This document shows, piece after piece, positions 1-11,452 of a DNA stretch of 60,005 nucleotides. A program made the position numbers and the translations under genes. The first letter of the stretch is position 1; every line of letters begins with the position of its first letter. The notes beneath the pieces were generated by a model that saw only the letters and a program-made list of their open reading frames with translations, was not told the DNA's origin and did not search any database. This DNA is from Oceanospirillum beijerinckii DSM 7166 (lineage in GTDB: Bacteria > Pseudomonadota > Gammaproteobacteria > Pseudomonadales > Halomonadaceae): assembly GCF_000422425.1 (NCBI RefSeq), contig NZ_AULT01000043.1, positions 1 through 60,005 of the forward strand, in the 5' to 3' direction.

Positions 1-339
1 GGCAACGTGAAATCCTCCTCATTAGCCAAAACCAAGATGGCGAAGTCTGTGCTGGATGCAGGTTGGGCCATGCTGAAAACGATGCTGGATTATAAATGCG
101 CTCACGCAGGTATTGTTTTCAAAGAAGTTGATGAGTCGTACACCACCCAAACCTGTTCGAGTTGTGGCAGTTTGCCCGATTCGAGGCCGAAAGGTATCGC
201 AGGGCTTGGAATAAGAGAGTGGATCTGCAGTGCGTGTGGTGTCACGCACGACCGCGATGTGAATGCGGCCAGGAACATTCTTGCGGTCGGACATGGCCGT
301 CTAGCTGTAGGAATCCCCCGCTATAATCAGCTTGCCTGA
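1..339 (+). CDS. tnpB: TnpB (IS200/IS605 RNA-guided nuclease), C-terminal part cut by the window edge
   Basis: The open frame runs in from the window edge, so only about 112 C-terminal residues are visible and the true start lies outside. It carries the OrfB zinc ribbon, with CSSCG and CSACG pairs about 22 residues apart, followed by DRDVNAARNIL, which holds the last RuvC acidic residue. TnpB is the omega-RNA-guided DNA nuclease of IS605-type elements and helps retain the element after TnpA transposition. The stop codon lies inside the element's terminal hairpin, as is usual for this family. Whether the gene is intact cannot be judged here, and no tnpA is visible. Confidence 0.9.
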   Translation, partial: GNVKSSSLAKTKMAKSVLDAGWAMLKTMLDYKCAHAGIVFKEVDESYTTQTCSSCGSLPDSRPKGIAGLGIREWICSACGVTHDRDVNAARNILAVGHGRLAVGIPRYNQLA

Positions 340-3515: not shown

Positions 3516-3632
3516 TTACTGAGGGGCTTGACTGTCCAGATCAAATGCTGGATCAGCTTCTAACCACATGGCGTTGATAATGCCGAAAGAAACGGCCAGT
3601 AACACACCTAAAATCCAGGCGAAGTACCACAT
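3516..3632 (-). CDS. cydX: Cytochrome bd oxidase small subunit CydX
   Basis: This 38-codon gene starts at the ATG at 3632 and ends with TAA at 3516. The product begins MWYFAWILGVLLA and continues with an FGIINAMWLE segment, the hallmark single transmembrane helix of CydX, then a short acidic tail ending SQAPQ. CydX stabilises the CydAB haem centres. It sits 27 bases downstream of cydB, its normal place. Confidence 0.95.
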   Translation of the reverse strand: MWYFAWILGVLLAVSFGIINAMWLEADPAFDLDSQAPQ

Positions 3633-3659: not shown

Positions 3660-4802
3660 TCAGTATGACAGCGGATTGCTCTCAACCTGTTTCGCGGTCA
3701 CTCGTCCCCACATTACCCGGTAGGTCCAAAGGGTGTAGAGCAGAATGATGGGGACAAAAATCATCGCCGCGATAAACATAATATTCAGCGTCAGGTGGCT
3801 GGATGCCGCATCCCAAAGGGTCAGGCTGCTGTTAGGGTCAACCCGAGATGGCAGTACAAAGGGGAACAGCGAGAAGGCTGCGGTACACACCACTGCGGTC
3901 ATCGTCAGGCTGTGGCTGACAAAGGCCAGCCCTGCCCGGTGATTGCGTATCAGGAACAGGCTGATCAGCGCCGTCACAAAACCGGCGACAGGTGCTGCCT
4001 GCATCCAGGGATAAAGCTGATAGTTCGTCAGCCAAGCGCCGGGCACGGTAACCACCTCTTTTGCTAACGGATTAGGCAGTGCATCCGGTGCCGGCATGTG
4101 ATCGATATGCAGTCCTGGCATATTGCTGATGAGTAACCAGAGTCCTGCCGCAGCAAAAGCGGTCATCATAAGGATCAGGCTGATCTGTCCGGCCTGGCGT
4201 GCCCGGTCAGCGATCTGCTGTTCGGCCCGCATCTGTAACCAGATAGCGCCATGAGTCGTCAGCATCATCAGGCTGACTACACCACACAGCAGAGCAAAGG
4301 GGTGAAACAGGTCAAAGAAGCTGCCCTGATAGTGTGGGCGCAGCAGATCATCCAGATAGAAATCCACTCCCAGCAGCAGGTTGCCAAAGGCAACGCCAAA
4401 CACCAGTGATGGAACCGTACCGCTGATAAACAGCCCCCAGTCCCAAGTGCTGCGCCAGCGTGGGTCTGCAATCTTGCTACGGTAGTCGAAACCGACCGGG
4501 CGGAAAAAGAGCGCAAACAGCACCAGCATCATAGCAAAGTAGAAACTGGAAAACGCGACAGCGTAGACCGCGGGCCAGGCGGCAAACAGCGCACCGCCTG
4601 CGGTAATAAACCATACCTGATTGCCGTCCCAGTGTGGGCCAACCGTATTAATGATAACCCGGCGTTCGGCATCGTTTTTACCCAGAAAGGGCAGCAGGAT
4701 ACCCGCGCCCATATCAAAGCCGTCGGTGACCATAAAGCCCACCAGCAGCACACCGACCAGAACCCACCAGGCCAGCTTCAGTGTTTCATAATCGAGAATC
4801 AT
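3660..4802 (-). CDS. cydB: Cytochrome bd ubiquinol oxidase subunit II (CydB)
   Basis: The 380-residue protein has the length and multi-pass membrane profile of CydB. The N-terminus contains 'GFMVTDGFDMGAGILLPFLG', then 'NTVGPHWDGNQVWFITAGGA', and later a Trp- and Arg-containing loop 'FFRPVGFDYRSKI', all hallmarks of subunit II. With CydA it makes the haem b558/b595/d quinol oxidase that reduces oxygen to water with high affinity. It starts 19 bases after cydA, which indicates co-transcription. Confidence 0.97.
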   Translation of the reverse strand: MILDYETLKLAWWVLVGVLLVGFMVTDGFDMGAGILLPFLGKNDAERRVIINTVGPHWDGNQVWFITAGGALFAAWPAVYAVAFSSFYFAMMLVLFALFFRPVGFDYRSKIADPRWRSTWDWGLFISGTVPSLVFGVAFGNLLLGVDFYLDDLLRPHYQGSFFDLFHPFALLCGVVSLMMLTTHGAIWLQMRAEQQIADRARQAGQISLILMMTAFAAAGLWLLISNMPGLHIDHMPAPDALPNPLAKEVVTVPGAWLTNYQLYPWMQAAPVAGFVTALISLFLIRNHRAGLAFVSHSLTMTAVVCTAAFSLFPFVLPSRVDPNSSLTLWDAASSHLTLNIMFIAAMIFVPIILLYTLWTYRVMWGRVTAKQVESNPLSY

Positions 4803-4820: not shown

Positions 4821-6419
4821 TCAAACATTCACCGATGCGTGTTCAGAGGCACCGGTATTCTTGGTCTGATGGGCTTGCTCAAAATGATAACGGCCGGTAT
4901 GCAGTGCACTGGGACCCAGGCGGGCATATTTAAACATCAGATACATCTCAGCGATCAGTAGCAGGGTATAAAACGCAACCAAGGCAATAATACTGGTGTA
5001 CAGGCTGCTGGCATCCAGTGACGAGGTGCTCAGATGAGTTGGCAGTATGCCGCCGATCGACCAGGGCTGGCGTCCGTATTCGGCTACAATCCAGCCGGTT
5101 TCAGCAGCGACCCAGGGCAGAGGTATGCTCCAGAGTACAATCTTCAGGAAGGTGCGGCGGCGCTCCAGCTGGCGGGTTGCATTGAAGTAGAAGGCCAGAA
5201 TAAAAATCGCCAGCATGGTAAAACCACAAGCCACCATCACCCTGAAACTCCAAAACAGCGGTGCCACATTGGGGATCGTATCCCGGGCAGCAGCTTTGAT
5301 CTCTTCTTCGGTGGCATCAATCACATCCGGGGTATAGCGTTTCAGTAGCAGGCCATAACCGAGGTCTTGTTTGACCTGCTCAAAACGGGCGATCGTCTGT
5401 TCATCGGTTTGCCCCGCTCTGAGTTTGGTTAGCAGGTCATAGGCGATCATACCGTTACGGACTTTATGTTCATGTTCGGCGATCAGATCCTTAATGCCGG
5501 TGACCTCCTCATCCAATGAGCGGGTTGCAATAATGCCCAGGGCATAGGGGATCTTAATGGCATAATCCGTGGTCATGGTTTCCTGATTAGGAATGCCAAA
5601 CAGCGTGAAGGATGCCGGAGCCGGGTGGGTATCCCATTCCGCTTCAATCGCCGCTAATTTGGTTTTCTGAACATCACCCAGCTCATAGCCGGACTCGTCA
5701 CCCAGAATAATAACCGACAGAATAGATGCCAGACCAAAGGCCGATGCCACGGCGAAGGAGCGACGGGCAAAAGGCAGGTCGCGTCCCTTTAGCAGGTAAA
5801 AAGCACTGATACCGAGAACAAACATTGAGCCTGTGACATAACCCGCAGCCACGGTATGGACAAACTTCACCTGGGCTACCGGGTTGAAGACCAACTCGGC
5901 AAAGCTGGTCATCTCCATACGCATAGTTTCGTAACTGAATTCGGCACCGACAGGATTTTGCATCCAGCCATTGGCGATCAGAATCCACAGTGCTGACAGA
6001 TTGGAGCCCAGAGCCATAAAGAATGTCACCATTAAATGGCGTCTGGGCGAAAGGCGGTCCCAGCCAAAGAAGAACAGGCCAATAAAGGTCGACTCCAGAA
6101 AGAAGGCCATCAGACCTTCAATGGCCAGGGGGGCGCCAAAAATATCGCCTACATAATGTGAGTAGTAGGCCCAGTTGGTGCCAAACTGAAACTCCATGGT
6201 CAGGCCGGTCGTCACACCCAGCGCAAAGTTGATACCAAACAGTTTGCCCCAGAACTGAGTCATATCCTTGTAGATCTGTTTACGGGTCATCACATAGATA
6301 GACTCCATAATGACCAGTAAAAAGGCTAAACCCAGGGTCAAGGGGACAAATATAAAGTGATAGAGTGCAGTGATGGCAAACTGCAGCCGGGATAGATCAA
6401 CAACTTCTTCAGTGATCAT
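4821..6419 (-). CDS. cydA: Cytochrome bd ubiquinol oxidase subunit I (CydA)
   Basis: This 532-residue protein is CydA, slightly longer than the E. coli form (522). It keeps the N-terminal haem ligand His21 in '[13 protein letters not shown]', the second ligand in '[12 protein letters not shown]', and the '[13 protein letters not shown]' signature near the C-terminal third. The insert between about residues 255 and 330 makes it a long-Q-loop type. It forms the quinol oxidation site facing the periplasm. The gene is second in the operon, 30 bases after cydP. Confidence 0.97.
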
Positions 6420-6449
6420 AGATTGCCTCTGTTTTAAGACGACTCTGCA

Positions 6450-6707
6450 TTACAGCCGGGTGAGATGAGTGGCAGGTTCCCCGGTGCTTTGGGGTTGAGA
6501 TTCTTTCAGGCGCAGGTCAGATGAGGGCGACACCAGATTCTTCTCGGTAGGAGTGATCAGCAAGAGCTGGCTCATACGTTGAGCATCAACACTTGTTTTA
6601 GCCGGAACAACAAAGTTAATCAGGCCATACAGCAGAACCAGCTTGATCAGTAGTACCAGGCTGATCTCTCTTATCAGTGGGTGTTGAAAAATAGACGGTG
6701 TTCTCAT
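6450..6707 (-). CDS. cydP: Putative small oxidase subunit CydP
   Basis: The 85-residue product begins with a short soluble part and a single transmembrane helix in 'HPLIREISLVLLIKLVLLYG', which matches the CydP family pattern (xPLxREIxxVLxIKL). Its polar tail is longer than in the CydP proteins I know. CydP genes lie directly upstream of cydAB in several proteobacteria and are proposed small subunits. An AGGATAGA ribosome site precedes the ATG at 6707. Being first in the operon, it is the gene served by the sigma-54 promoter at 6879-6896. Confidence 0.75.
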   Translation of the reverse strand: MRTPSIFQHPLIREISLVLLIKLVLLYGLINFVVPAKTSVDAQRMSQLLLITPTEKNLVSPSSDLRLKESQPQSTGEPATHLTRL

Positions 6708-6878
6708 CTTCTATCCTATGCCTGTCGAGGTGATGGGCAGAGTAAACACAGTGAAAAATAAGTACCGAAACCATGGGCTGATTCGTTAAGTGATCATGCC
6801 TGTTTTGTTTCGATGTGTTGTGCTGGCGGCGGTTTGTTATCGGTTTTATAGCACTCGCTGCGAGTACTTCTTGTATAG

Positions 6879-6896
6879 AGCAAAGGTTATGCCTAT
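6879..6896 (-). promoter_or_regulatory. Sigma-54 (-24/-12) promoter of the cyd operon
   Basis: Read on the minus strand the site is TAGGCATAACCTTTGCTC. It has GG (-24) and GC (-12) separated by exactly ten bases and the full TTTGCT downstream element, against the consensus TGGCAY-N5-TTGCW. The start would fall near 6868, leaving a leader of about 160 bases before cydP. The divergent neighbour encodes a sigma-54 activator, which supports the call. Confidence 0.75.
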
Positions 6897-6956
6897 CTGT
6901 CATTTTTTGTTAGTTCATTGATTTTTATAGGTTTTATTTCTGTCGTCTCAGATTTT

Positions 6957-7014
6957 CTGTCTGTTTTTGACAGTAATGTCTGTATTGGGAGTTGTTTTTT
7001 GACATAAATGACAG
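6957..7014. promoter_or_regulatory. Probable enhancer sites for the sigma-54 activator
   Basis: A perfect inverted repeat, CTGTC-N7-GACAG, occupies 6957-6973. Further half-sites are ATGTC at 6976-6980, GACAT at 7001-7005 and GACAG at 7010-7014. They lie 60-130 bases upstream of the cyd -24/-12 element and directly upstream of the activator gene at 7081, so they fit an upstream activating sequence that may also serve autoregulation. Assignment to this activator is inferred. Confidence 0.5.
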
Positions 7015-7080
7015 TGAGCAATTTTTTATATAAGATGTTTTTAAATTATTGGCTTAGGCATTTGAGTAGGGCATGACGCT

Positions 7081-8454
7081 ATGGAAGCTGACACAAAACG
7101 CATTGACACTTTTGACGTAACGCTGCCACCAGGAATACTGTCCATGTTGGAGAGTTACCCTGATCCAGCGGTATTGCTGTCGTTGGATTATCGTATTCTG
7201 GCGACCAATGAGGCTTACCGCCAGGCTTATGGCGATGCCAGTGTTACCAAGCGGCACTGTTATGAAGTGTCTCACCATTATGATCAGCCCTGTGATCTGA
7301 TGGGAGAGTCCTGTCCCATGAAACGCTGTATTGAAACCGGTAAGGTGCAGCGGGTGTTTCATCTGCACCATACCAGTCAGGGTGAAGAGCATGTGGATGT
7401 TGAGCTGTATCCTGTCGCATCAGAGACTGGCGAGCCGGAATACTTTCTCGAAGTGATGCGCTATAGCAAGCTGGCCAGCCCTCGTCCTGGCGGCACGCCC
7501 TTGGTTGGGCGTTCGGCACGTTTTAATGAAACCCTGGGTTTGATTGAGCGGGTGGCACCCAGTGAAACCACGGTGTTGTTATTGGGTGAATCCGGTACGG
7601 GTAAGGAGCTAATGGCTCAGGCGGTGCATAAGGGCAGTAACCGCAATCAGGGGCCTTTTGTGCCGGTGGAGTGCTCCGGTTTGACCGAAACTCTGTTTGA
7701 AAGTGAGTTGTTCGGTCATGAGAAAGGTTCTTTTACCGGCGCAAACAATCGCAAGATAGGACTGGTGGAATCAGCTGCTGGTGGCACCCTATTTCTGGAT
7801 GAGATCGGTGATATTCCGCTGCCACAGCAGGTAAAATTGTTACGCCTGCTGGAAACCGGCACCTATCGTCGTGTCGGTGGGGTAGAAACCCTGAAAGCGG
7901 ATTTTCGTTTGGTATGTGCGACCCACAGACATCTGGAACAGCAGGTAAAAGATGGTGAATTCCGTATGGATCTCTACTACCGTATCAACGCCTTTCCGGT
8001 AGACCTGCCTGCGTTAAGAGAACGAAGCGATGATCTGCCGTTACTAATCGAGAATCTGTTACCGCACTTTGCCGGGGATCGTCAGCTGAAAGTAAGTCCT
8101 GAAGCGATCGCCTGTCTACAGCAATATCACTTTCCCGGTAATGTGCGTGAGCTACGCAATATCTTAGAACGTGCCTGTTTATTGGTCGATGACCAGGTGA
8201 TTGAACCAGAGCATTTGCCAAAACACTGTCTGTTAGCAAGCCGTTGGCAGGGCAATCAGGATATTCAACAGCAACAGTTATCGGAAATGGGTGTGCTGCA
8301 GCCGATGCCGCTGTATCAGGTGGAAAAACTCTATCTACAGTGGCTGTGGCAACAGCTAAAAGGCGATAAACCGGCGATGGCTCGTCTGCTGGAGGTTAGT
8401 GAACGCACCCTTTATCGGAAATTAAAGGAATTTAATATCGATACAAACCACTGA
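7081..8454 (+). CDS. PAS-domain sigma-54-dependent activator, probable regulator of the cyd operon
   Basis: The 457-residue protein has an N-terminal PAS domain (about 20-128), an AAA+ domain (about 140-370) and a Fis-type helix-turn-helix at the end (about 415-455). The AAA+ part has Walker A GESGTGKE (169-176), the sigma-54 contact loop GSFTGA (216-221) and Walker B TLFLDEI (236-242). All are intact, so it should open sigma-54 promoters. The PAS domain has four cysteines (Cys60, 71, 78, 83) that could bind a metal or sense redox. It is divergent from cydP-cydABX, whose promoter looks sigma-54 type; that it controls that operon is inferred from this layout. Confidence 0.88.
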
Positions 8455-8703: not shown

Positions 8704-8961
8704 ATGACTAAATCTAAACTGGCTATGGCCTCTGTAATGACTGGCATTATCGCACTGGGCGCGGCGACTGCGACCCCTGCACTGGCAGGTGGTAAAGAGA
8801 AATGCTACGGCGTAGCCAAAGCAGGTCATAACGATTGCGCAACCAATAACAGTTCTTGTGCGGGTACCTCTAAAACCGATAACCAAGGCGATGCATTTCT
8901 GGCAGTGCCTAAAGGTATGTGCTCCAAACTGTCCGGTGGTAGCCTGACGCCAAAAGGCTAA
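8704..8961 (+). CDS. bufA1: Bufferin precursor BufA1 (DUF2282)
   Basis: I chose the ATG at 8704 because AAGG lies eight bases upstream; a GTG at 8695 overlaps that site. The 85-residue product has a long Ala-rich signal peptide ending PALA-GG near residue 28, then a mature part with four cysteines (34, 45, 52, 73) in KCYG, NDCA, SSCAG and KGMC contexts, typical of DUF2282. In characterised bufferins some of these cysteines are modified by BufB/BufC and the peptide chelates copper in the periplasm. The gene heads an operon with bufB, bufC and a DoxX gene. Confidence 0.88.
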
Positions 8962-9082
8962 ACCTACCTCCCGACTTACTAAGTCTGACCTCAGAAGTCA
9001 GTTTCCCCTCTGGCTTCTGAGAGACTTGGATCTTCTGAGTCAACTCTATCTTCTTCATGGTTAACCAAATGGAGTATTCGCT

Positions 9083-10045
9083 ATGGATGCTGCACAGGAT
9101 CTCTCTGCGTCTCAAACAGGTTCAAGTCTGGCTATTCCCGCAGCCAGTGTTGGTATGGGGCTGCGTGCGCCACACTTTAATGATCTGCTGACGGAGCTGC
9201 CTGAGGTGTCCTGGCTGGAGGTTCACAGCGAAAACTATCTGGATGAACAGGGCGTACAGCGTTATATCCTGCGTCAGGTCGCGCAACACTATCCATTAAG
9301 CTTTCACGGAGTTGGTTTATCGCTGGGTTCCAGTGATCCACTGAATCCTGAACATCTGACGGCACTAAAAAAACTGATCGACGAGTTTCAACCGGCATTA
9401 CTCTCTGAACACCTGAGCTGGAGTTCAGTATCCGGTCGTTACTTTAATGATCTATTACCCATTCCTTATACCCAGGAGAGCCTTGAGCACTTCTGTCGTC
9501 AAGTGGATCAGGCCCAGCAAGTGCTGGGACGTCAGATTCTGGTGGAAAACCCAACCGCGTATCTGAACTACAAAGATTCTATCTTTTCCGAGTGGGATTT
9601 TCTGAATCAGATTGTTGAGCAAACCGGCTGTGGTCTACTGTTGGATCTGAACAATATCTATGTCAATTCGGTCAATCACAGCTTTGACTGCCAGGACTAT
9701 CTGGACAATATCAATCTGGATGCGGTGGGCGAGCTGCATCTGGCAGGGTTCTCGGTCAATGAATATGACCAGGGGCGAATGCTGATTGATACCCATGGTA
9801 ATCGTGTTAGTGATCCTGTGTGGCAGCTGTTTGCTCAGGTACGTCATCAGCTGAATTGTCAGGCACCTGCCCTGGTTGAGTGGGATACGGATATTCCTGA
9901 AATGTCCGTGCTGCTTGAAGAAGTGGGTAAAGCTGAAGCTATTCAGCAAGCGAAAGATATAGAACAGGTCGATATAACCAAACTGGCTGATGATGTATCT
10001 GCTGGAACGGGTTTCACTGTGGCACAGGAGGCGAGCCATGTCTGA
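9083..10045 (+). CDS. bufB: MNIO-family (DUF692) peptide-modifying enzyme BufB
   Basis: The 320-residue protein is a DUF692 TIM-barrel oxidase. It retains 'SFHGVGLSLGS' near 77-87, 'LVENPTAYL', 'LLLDLNNIYVN' near 189, 'ELHLAGF' and 'DTHGNRVSDPVWQLF', which carry the His, Asp, Glu and Asn residues used for the multinuclear iron site. These enzymes modify cysteines of a precursor peptide together with a DUF2063-type partner. GGAG lies nine bases before the ATG. The end overlaps bufC by eight bases, which indicates translational coupling. A ~35-residue tail beyond the barrel is not family-typical. Confidence 0.92.
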   Translation: MDAAQDLSASQTGSSLAIPAASVGMGLRAPHFNDLLTELPEVSWLEVHSENYLDEQGVQRYILRQVAQHYPLSFHGVGLSLGSSDPLNPEHLTALKKLIDEFQPALLSEHLSWSSVSGRYFNDLLPIPYTQESLEHFCRQVDQAQQVLGRQILVENPTAYLNYKDSIFSEWDFLNQIVEQTGCGLLLDLNNIYVNSVNHSFDCQDYLDNINLDAVGELHLAGFSVNEYDQGRMLIDTHGNRVSDPVWQLFAQVRHQLNCQAPALVEWDTDIPEMSVLLEEVGKAEAIQQAKDIEQVDITKLADDVSAGTGFTVAQEASHV

Positions 10046-10994
10046 TCAAGCCGTGTCTGATCAAACTATAACTGATCAAGCCATGTCCGATATGGCAGCT
10101 ACAGCAGCAATGCCTCAAGACCTGAAAAATCTGCAACTGCAGTTTGCCCAGGCGTTAATCACACCCGGTGAGCAGCCAGAGCTCTATCAACAGATTCAGG
10201 ACAGCCAACAAATACAGGACAGCCATTTCGATGCGGATCAGCTGCTGCAGATCTATCGCAATAACTTTGTGCTGAGTCTGACAGAATCTCTGGAAATCAC
10301 CTTTCCTGTATTACGGGTGATGGTGGGTGAGGAGTTTTTCGCCCAACTGGCGAAAGCCTTTATCTGCCAGGTTCCGATGGAAAAGGCCGCAGTGGCTGAG
10401 TTTGGTGATCTGCTGCCAGAATTTATGGCCAATTTGGAACAGCTCAGCGAAATGTCATATCTGGTGGATTTGGCGCGTTTTGAATGGGCCTACTCGGTAC
10501 GGATTAATCGCATGCCCCAGGCAGAGCCGTTTCCTTATCAGGCGCTGGCTGAACTCAGTGAAGACGACTATGAGCGTATGAGCTTTAGCGTCAATCCTGA
10601 TCTGACGCTATTTCAATCCCAATGGGCCATTATTGAACTGTTCCAGCGTTTAAAAAACTGGCTGGTACAAAGAGAAGCTTGTTGTACTGTTAACAGTAGT
10701 AGGGAGAGTGCAGCTAATGCTGCTGGTTATAAAAGTGATAGCGAACAGACAGAAGATGATCCGTTAGCAGGTTTGCAGCTGGATCAACCTCAGCAGGGTT
10801 ATATCGCAACCACGGGATTGGCAGAAGTAGAATATCAGGTGGTTGATAGCGGTATCTTTGTCCTATTGGAACACTGCCAACAATCGCAATTATTTAACCA
10901 GTTTGAACATGATGATGCCGAAGCTTTACTGCAGCAAGGCATCAGCTCGGGCCTGATTACAGGTTTTATCCTGCGCTCTGAGTCTGGAGTATAA
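10038..10994 (+). CDS. bufC: DUF2063 family partner protein BufC
   Basis: I start it at 10038 because GGAGG sits just upstream and this start overlaps the end of bufB. The 318-residue product has a DUF2063 N-terminal domain (about 30-125, with 'LQIYRNNFVLSLTESLEITFPVL') and a more variable C-terminal domain. BufC recruits the precursor to the MNIO enzyme. Two local duplications are seen: SDQ/TDQ repeats in the first 17 residues and QIQDSQ-QIQDS near 48-60. A Ser/Asn/Glu-rich insert near 215-240 interrupts the second domain. Confidence 0.88.
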   Translation: MSDQAVSDQTITDQAMSDMAATAAMPQDLKNLQLQFAQALITPGEQPELYQQIQDSQQIQDSHFDADQLLQIYRNNFVLSLTESLEITFPVLRVMVGEEFFAQLAKAFICQVPMEKAAVAEFGDLLPEFMANLEQLSEMSYLVDLARFEWAYSVRINRMPQAEPFPYQALAELSEDDYERMSFSVNPDLTLFQSQWAIIELFQRLKNWLVQREACCTVNSSRESAANAAGYKSDSEQTEDDPLAGLQLDQPQQGYIATTGLAEVEYQVVDSGIFVLLEHCQQSQLFNQFEHDDAEALLQQGISSGLITGFILRSESGV

Positions 10995-11005
10995 GGAATA
11001 CAGTA

Positions 11006-11452
11006 ATGACGACATTGATAACACTATATAGCCGTTTTTTTGAATGCTTGGAAAAGTTGGCTACGCCTCTGGTATTGCTGTTTGTACGCATCTGGGCGGC
11101 CAAAGCTTTTTTGCAATCCGGTTTGGTCAAAATCCAGAGCTGGGACAGCACTCTATATTTATTCGAAGAAGAGTATCAGGTACCGCTGTTACCATGGGAG
11201 ATGGCGGCTTATCTGGGCACCGCAGCAGAACTGATTTTGCCTCCGTTGTTGATTATTGGTCTGATGAGCCGCGGCGTCGCTTCTGCACTGTTCGTATTCA
11301 ATATCATGGCGGTAATCTCTTACCCTGTGTTATGGGATCAGGGGTTCTATGACCACCAGCTGTGGGGCTTGATGTTCCTGATGACGGCGATCTTTGGGCC
11401 TGGTGCACTGTCGGTGGATCATCTACTGAAAAAACGTTTTCCAACTAAGTGA
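11006..11452 (+). CDS. DoxX family membrane protein of the bufferin operon
   Basis: The 148-residue protein has four hydrophobic segments and the DoxX pattern: a first helix with 'RIWAAKAFLQSGLVKIQSW', then 'LGTAAELILPPLLIIGL', and a last helix before a short basic tail. DoxX proteins are quinone- or redox-associated inner-membrane proteins that often accompany bufferin operons. The gene begins 11 bases after bufC, so it is in the same operon. Its precise role here is unknown. Confidence 0.88.
   Translation: MTTLITLYSRFFECLEKLATPLVLLFVRIWAAKAFLQSGLVKIQSWDSTLYLFEEEYQVPLLPWEMAAYLGTAAELILPPLLIIGLMSRGVASALFVFNIMAVISYPVLWDQGFYDHQLWGLMFLMTAIFGPGALSVDHLLKKRFPTK

What the first reader, a model, noticed from the sequence alone, without database searches (positions are those of the whole stretch)
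6450..7080. Cytochrome bd operon apparently driven by sigma-54
A near-perfect -24/-12 element lies upstream of cydP-cydABX and the divergent gene is a sigma-54 activator. Known cydAB control is mainly by Fnr, ArcA, CydR or RegA types, so an enhancer-activated oxidase operon looks unusual.
Basis: partly seen in the sequence, partly recalled or inferred. Interest (0 to 1): 0.7.

Follow-up and report, generated by a model that had tools for sequence, protein, structure and literature searches.

The report
Sulfide-sensor gene driving a respiratory oxidase
In a marine Oceanospirillum-like bacterium, genes for the sulfide-tolerant respiratory enzyme cytochrome bd lie back to back with a gene for a relative of the known sulfur sensor FisR, and conserved DNA signals suggest that this sensor switches the enzyme on through the sigma-54 system.

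Summary
The observation largely holds. A sigma-54 site (minus strand 6894-6879) faces cydP-cydA-cydB-cydX, and the divergent gene (7081-8454) encodes a PAS/AAA+/HTH_8 sigma-54 activator. The site is good, not near-perfect, and weak evidence alone. Comparison carries the case: a cyd-facing site scores 11 or more in 45 of 45 loci where cyd genes lie next to this activator (opposite strand: 2 of 45), and a shared upstream palindrome, TGYCA-N4-TGRCA, is found in 40 of 45. FisR is a published sulfane-sulfur-sensing sigma-54 activator of sulfide-oxidation genes. Three cysteines (60, 71, 78) are invariant in 33 of 33 aligned relatives, and relatives lie beside persulfide-dioxygenase/SQR-type genes. 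Best reading: sulfide raises sulfane sulfur, FisR activates sigma-54 polymerase, and a sulfide-tolerant oxidase is made. In this genome the likely sulfide-oxidation genes lack these signals, so the sensor may serve the oxidase alone. Ten literature searches found sulfide-induced cydAB and FisR-controlled pdo-sqr, but no report of FisR or sigma-54 control of cydAB. New variant of a known kind; nothing was tested experimentally.

The parts
7081..8454 (+). FisR-type sigma-54 activator, 457 aa: PAS_4 (residues 23-127), Sigma54_activat (141-307), HTH_8 (426-451); Cys60, Cys71, Cys78; GSFTGA variant of the GAFTGA loop
6450..6707 (-). cydP, 85 aa, putative small subunit of the oxidase, first gene of the operon
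   Evidence: 27.3 bits, cut-off 29.6; E 2.5e-6; no Pfam hit
4821..6419 (-). cydA, 532 aa, cytochrome bd subunit I
3660..4802 (-). cydB, 380 aa, cytochrome bd subunit II
3516..3632 (-). cydX, 38 aa
6879..6894 (-). -24/-12 sigma-54 promoter AGGCATAACCTTTGCT facing cydP
   Evidence: conserved (GGCATA and TTGCT invariant in four Oceanospirillum-type sequences)
6868..6868 (-). predicted transcript start
   Evidence: inferred from the position of the -12 GC; not mapped
7000..7013 (-). putative activator site TGTCATTTATGTCA (one mismatch to TGYCA-N4-TGRCA), centred about 139 bp upstream of 6868
6968..6981 (+). degenerate second site TGACAGTAATGTCT, where O. maris and O. sanctuarii have a perfect motif copy
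   Evidence: read; three mismatches to the motif in the window

Best explanation
The divergent gene encodes a FisR-type activator. Sulfide, or sulfane sulfur formed from it, modifies Cys60/71/78 of the PAS sensor. The activator, bound at TGYCA-N4-TGRCA about 139 bp upstream of the start, hydrolyses ATP and opens RpoN-polymerase at the -24/-12 site. That turns on cydPABX and so makes a quinol oxidase that goes on working when sulfide blocks other oxidases. Shown: gene order, domains, conserved cysteines, conserved promoter and upstream motif, and kinship with proteins encoded beside persulfide-dioxygenase and SQR-type genes. Inferred: the ligand, the binding of this protein to this motif, RpoN dependence and the physiological role.
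For: Domains. Cys60/71/78 and His65 invariant in 33 of 33; C53-C64 tetrasulfide reported for C. pinatubonensis FisR (PMC8614764, passages), the same 11-residue spacing as 60-71; three conserved cysteines (PMC9774590, passages). Divergent PDO-like gene in 25 of 34 loci of the order, phosphatase-flavoprotein fusion in 25, SulP permease in 22, cydA in 18. A 51% identical homologue in Cupriavidus metallidurans is divergent to PDO- and SQR-like genes. cyd-facing sigma-54 site in 45 of 45 and motif in 40 of 45. 13 control cydA loci: 1 site, 0 motifs, 6 FNR-like boxes. A cydA 7.5 kb from its activator still has both site and motif (L167). Published: FisR is needed for sulfide induction of A. baumannii pdo-sqr, and cydAB is induced by sulfide there (PMC7315123, sections 7 and 9 read).
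Against: No expression or binding data. The window's own promoter is weaker than most (12.1; mean of 65 loci 14.5), and its motif has one mismatch plus a degenerate second copy. In this genome the PDO-like and SQR-like genes lack site and motif, so the sulfur link rests on relatives and cysteines. In A. baumannii the sections I read do not say that cydAB induction needs FisR, and report many sulfide-driven protein changes common to wild type and fisR deletion. 46 of 104 homologues have neither cyd nor PDO label nearby. The motif was counted on the loci it was derived from.
Confidence: 0.72

Rival explanations
1. The operon is sigma-54 driven by this activator, but the signal is not sulfane sulfur: the cysteine-bearing PAS domain reports oxygen, redox state, nitric oxide, cyanide or a metal.
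For: cydAB is commonly tied to low oxygen; in this genome the sulfide-oxidation genes lack the motif; 46 of 104 homologues have neither cyd nor PDO label nearby, and some lie beside a FixG-like gene.
Against: The three FisR cysteines are invariant in 33 of 33, and many relatives with the same motif drive PDO/SQR-type genes.
Confidence: 0.17
2. cyd is really transcribed from a sigma-70 promoter under FNR/ArcA-type control, and the sigma-54 site is minor or a decoy.
For: 6 of 13 cydA loci without the activator nearby have an FNR-like box with at most one mismatch; B. cenocepacia cydPABX has a putative Anr box (PMC9104464, passages). The site alone is not exceptional in the window.
Against: Best FNR-like box in the intergenic region has 3 mismatches; no sigma-70-like site faces cyd; site and motif are conserved.
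Confidence: 0.07
3. The upstream motif belongs to the activator's own promoter or to another protein, and the activator's real targets lie elsewhere in the genome.
For: 39 perfect motif places exist in the genome.
Against: Sites face cyd or PDO, not the activator gene (62 against 3 of 65). The 39 places barely exceed the reversed control, 29; 38 of them examined with flanks gave five sigma-54 matches at 10.6-11.7.
Confidence: 0.03

Closest known systems
FisR of Cupriavidus pinatubonensis JMP134 and Acinetobacter baumannii
   Same: Sigma-54 activator with sensor, AAA+ and DNA-binding parts; cysteine pair with 11-residue spacing (C53-C64 there, 60-71 here); encoded divergently to its target; sigma-54 promoter (PMC7315123, PMC8614764)
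   Different: Published targets are pdo-sqr genes; here the neighbour is cydPABX, and the PDO-like gene lies on another contig without the signals. The 2017 founding paper was not read.
cydPABX of Burkholderia cenocepacia
   Same: Same gene order with cydP first (PMC9104464, passages)
   Different: There a putative Anr box is proposed; here no FNR-like box but a sigma-54 site. That paper says cydP is not found outside Burkholderiales; a CydP-like gene is here, in O. sediminis and annotated in Pseudoalteromonas.
Sulfide-induced cydAB of A. baumannii
   Same: A sulfide-tolerant oxidase made in response to sulfide (PMC7315123)
   Different: The responsible regulator is not named in the parts I read; here a dedicated one lies alongside.
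NorR
   Same: Sigma-54 activator with a similar AAA+/HTH part; its GTCA/TGAC half-sites (recalled) resemble the motif
   Different: Score 270.6 against a cut-off of 476; PAS_4 in place of a GAF domain (GAF in NorR recalled)

Membership tests
FisR-type sulfane-sulfur activator | Sensor domain, AAA+ sigma-54 interaction domain, Fis-type HTH | tested here: met
   PAS_4, Sigma54_activat and HTH_8, all over Pfam's cut-offs
FisR-type sulfane-sulfur activator | Conserved sensing cysteines with the FisR spacing | tested here: met
   Cys60/71/78 in 33 of 33; spacing compared with C53-C64 as given in PMC8614764; the third FisR position, C71, is recalled
FisR-type sulfane-sulfur activator | Sigma-54 promoter and upstream sites at the divergent target | tested here: met
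   binding itself not shown
FisR-type sulfane-sulfur activator | Encoded beside, and controlling, pdo-sqr genes | tested here: not met
   The neighbour here is cydPABX; PDO-like and SQR-like genes lie elsewhere without site or motif. Met in 25 of 34 homologue loci of the order for PDO. This describes known members' targets rather than the protein, so I call it FisR-type, not FisR.
FisR-type sulfane-sulfur activator | Activation by sulfide or sulfane sulfur | not testable with these tools
   needs an experiment
FNR/ArcA-type cyd control | FNR box upstream of cyd | tested here: not met
   best match has 3 mismatches; ArcA sites not tested
NorR | Whole-protein NorR model score | tested here: not met
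   270.6 bits against a cut-off of 476; only residues 138-453 match
Cytochrome bd oxidase operon | CydA, CydB and CydX | tested here: met
   Pfam cut-offs passed for all three

The most novel reading that the evidence does not exclude
A widespread, undescribed respiratory switch: FisR-type sulfane-sulfur sensors that directly command a terminal oxidase through sigma-54 and a TGYCA-N4-TGRCA enhancer. In lineages such as this one the sensor has been cut loose from sulfide oxidation and serves the oxidase alone, so that sulfur stress rewires the respiratory chain.
Probability: 0.5. Interest if true: 0.7.

Novelty: new variant of a known kind. Interest (0 to 1): 0.55.

Why it matters
Sulfide is known to induce cydAB in several bacteria (PMC7315123), but in what I read no sensor sitting with the oxidase genes is named. 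This locus offers a complete, testable circuit: sensor, cysteines, enhancer motif, promoter and a sulfide-tolerant oxidase. It recurs in Gamma- and Betaproteobacteria, and the motif could be used to predict further FisR-type targets.

Tried and rejected
Consensus count alone: no excess of -24/-12 matches in the window, hence the comparisons. Sulfide-oxidation genes of this genome as targets: no site or motif upstream of the PDO-like gene or the SQR-like gene. The phosphatase-SQR fusion of other loci: no match in this genome at 1e-15, but an SQR-like flavoprotein is there. Further targets: 39 perfect motif places against 29 for the reversed control; 38 examined with flanks gave five sigma-54 matches of 10.6-11.7, and the 39th (L156:4320) has no site of 11 or more near it; not pursued. 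C. necator CO-tolerance paper (PMC10164946, passages): a mutation upstream of cydA2B2 raises expression and rpoN mutations arose, but the authors predict a new sigma-70 promoter, and the rpoN mutations did not significantly change growth rate under CO. Nitrospira paper (PMC6606698, passages): its sigma-54 regulators are tied to nxr. Sigma-54 regulon survey (PMC12316311) and bd-oxidase evolution paper (PMC5322542), searched by terms only: no FisR or cyd in the former, no sigma factor or sulfide in the latter. No structure prediction was run.

Limits: sigma-54 matrix weights are from memory; the motif was counted on the loci it was found in; the 65 loci were chosen because cyd, cydP or PDO began within 1.6 kb of the activator, and where the gap is long (for example L056, L096, L114, L119, L142) another gene lies between; a few PDO matches are weak (25-31% identity). 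104 of 116 candidate loci entered the tree, the rest having short or interrupted matches or none. The tree was the quick method without bootstrap, and the places of long rows (the outgroup, L165, L166) are unsure. Linkage labels are rough where a locus ends inside a gene (L034, L084). The two plasmid records are weaker: L165 site 11.2, lacking the -12 GC, with a one-mismatch motif; L166 site 11.4 with a perfect motif.

Full report
What is there. The window lies in a 5.3-Mb genome with one rpoN gene. The nearest named relatives of the activator are from Oceanospirillum sediminis, O. maris and O. sanctuarii, so the organism is probably an Oceanospirillum or close kin. On the minus strand cydP (6450-6707), cydA (4821-6419), cydB (3660-4802) and cydX (3516-3632) follow one another; CydP scores just under its NCBIfam cut-off. 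Divergently, 7081-8454 encodes a 457-aa protein with PAS_4, Sigma54_activat and HTH_8 domains. It passes none of the cut-offs of the 25 NCBIfam families shown, of 28 hit.

The promoter. AGGCATAACCTTTGCT at 6894-6879, minus strand, scores 12.1 on my approximate matrix (perfect 19.3). It ranks third in the window, and the next-best site in the intergenic region scores 4.9. Markov resampling of that region reaches 12.1 in 0.5% (cyd-facing strand) or 2.3% (both strands) of 1000 cases. A plain count over the window shows no excess (30 against 42.4). So 'near-perfect' overstates it, and the site alone proves little.

Who the activator is. In 194 genomes of the order, own included, 34 have a homologue of at least 360 bits; the next hit has 271 bits and no match over the sensor. 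I fetched stretches around the other 33 and clustered their ORFs with the window's. Clusters on the divergent side: a metallo-beta-lactamase-fold protein like persulfide dioxygenase (25 of 34 loci), a BLH-phosphatase/flavoprotein fusion of SQR type (25), a SulP permease (22), cydB (19), cydA (18). The names PDO and SQR are my reading of Pfam hits and context. That is FisR's company: in A. baumannii FisR is divergent to pdo1-sqr-tauE and needed for their sulfide induction (PMC7315123, sections 7 and 9 read). C. pinatubonensis FisR forms a tetrasulfide between C53 and C64 (PMC8614764, passages). Here Cys60, Cys71, Cys78 and His65 are invariant in 33 of 33 aligned homologues, and 60-71 has the same spacing (one locus, L063, gave no usable ORF). 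In Cupriavidus metallidurans CH34 a homologue 51% identical over 96% of the query is divergent to PDO- and SQR-like genes.

How widespread the cyd link is. With the earlier loci and two plasmid records, 104 of 116 homologues entered a quick tree. cyd genes lie divergent within 8 kb in 46 of 104: 29 long-type cydA alone, 3 long-type with PDO, 12 short-type with PDO, 2 short-type alone. PDO without cyd: 12. Neither label: 46. The cyd-linked ones are spread over the tree, among them Oceanospirillum, Marinobacterium, Nitrincola, Thalassolituus, Thiobacillus, Sulfuricella and Thiomargarita. A Pseudoalteromonas xiamenensis record annotates cydP, cydB and cydX divergent to a sigma 54-interacting regulator.

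Promoter conservation. In 65 loci where cyd, cydP or PDO begins within 1.6 kb of the activator, the best outward sigma-54 site scores 11 or more in 62; on the other strand in 3 (means 14.5 and 5.3). The three misses are PDO loci. Where a cyd gene is the nearest of those, it is 45 of 45 against 2 of 45, with shuffles averaging 2.5 and at most 5. Keeping one of each set of activators 80% or more alike: 34 of 34. In the window and the three Oceanospirillum relatives, GGCATA and TTGCT are invariant.

The upstream motif. Dyad counting between promoter and activator gene gave TGTCA-N4-TGACA / TGCCA-N4-TGGCA far above shuffles. As TGYCA-N4-TGRCA with at most one mismatch it is in 60 of 65 loci, twice or more in 31; 200 shuffles average 1.6 loci and reach 5 at most. 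Successive copies, two mismatches allowed, are most often 21-23 or 9 bp apart. In the 40 of 45 cyd loci that have one, the best copy is centred 77-271 bp upstream of the predicted start, 35 of them at 106-198. The window has TGTCATTTATGTCA at 7013-7000 (one mismatch), about 139 bp upstream of 6868, and a degenerate second copy at 6968-6981. Among the 46 homologues without a cyd or PDO label (a few of which are also in the 65), 40 have the motif and 23 an outward sigma-54 site, against 3 on the other strand.

Controls. Thirteen cydA loci without an activator homologue in the flank (ten from the order, one each from this genome, O. sediminis and O. maris): 1 has a sigma-54 site of 11 or more, 0 the motif, 6 an FNR-like box with at most one mismatch. 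In the window's intergenic region the best FNR-like match has three mismatches, and no sigma-70-like site faces cyd. In one genome whose activator is 7.5 kb from cydA, cydA still has a site of 12.0 and a one-mismatch motif (L167), which speaks for function rather than adjacency. Against this, one activator-adjacent locus (L175) has a site of 13.0 but no motif with fewer than two mismatches, as have 4 further of the 45.

What is special here. The PDO-like gene of this genome is on another contig, divergent to a gene that reads as a SulP permease (not tested by family search), and an SQR-like gene lies elsewhere. Neither has the promoter and motif upstream. Perfect motif places in the genome (39) barely exceed the reversed control (29), and the 38 examined with flanks show only five sigma-54 matches, all under 12. 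So the FisR-type protein may serve the oxidase alone here. O. sediminis has kept activator, promoter and a cydP-like gene, but no cydAB in that locus, and the only cydA match in its genome is 37% identical.

Mechanism. Sulfide enters, sulfane sulfur rises, cysteines of the PAS sensor are bridged, the AAA+ part bound upstream opens RpoN-polymerase at the -24/-12 site, cydPABX is made, and electrons leave the quinone pool through an oxidase that sulfide does not block. That cytochrome bd resists sulfide is stated in PMC7315123 and PMC8148161 (passages). Ligand, binding and RpoN steps are inferred. A. baumannii gives no direct support for the cyd link: its cydAB is induced by sulfide, but FisR dependence is not stated in what I read.

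Novelty. Ten searches of the held library turned up sulfide induction of cydAB and FisR control of pdo-sqr. I saw no statement that a FisR-type protein or sigma-54 controls cydAB, and no FisR binding motif; most of these papers I saw only as listings. The founding FisR paper (Mol Microbiol 2017) was not read and supplements were not available, so priority is uncertain. New variant of a known kind.

Noticed in passing
window 8704-11452: Downstream of the activator, same strand: a DUF2282 bufferin-like peptide gene (8704-8961; under NCBIfam's BufA2 cut-off), an MbnB/TglH/ChrH-type gene (9083-10045), a DUF2063 gene and a small membrane protein gene; O. sediminis has two such peptide genes in the same place.
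   Followed up: partly
L065 (Oceanospirillum sediminis) 6397-6955: cydP-like gene, sigma-54 site and activator kept, but cydAB missing from the locus; only a 37% identical cydA elsewhere.
   Followed up: partly
L103, L120 and other Azonexaceae/Rhodocyclaceae loci: Divergent to the FisR-type gene lies a FixG-like ferredoxin protein gene (tested in L120) rather than cyd or PDO; the motif is present.
   Followed up: partly
L138:8288-9765 and similar Betaproteobacteria loci: Downstream of the activator, a glycosyltransferase-3-like gene and a Rieske-type gene recur as a pair.
   Followed up: no
L160 (G000 contig 43, 11260-12537): A second, short-type cydA (35-37% identical) in the same genome, without sigma-54 site, motif or near-consensus FNR box in 700 bp upstream.
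   Followed up: partly
window 7-339: ORF that looks like the C-terminal part of a TnpB-type transposon protein with a CxxC zinc ribbon (recognised by eye, not searched).
   Followed up: no
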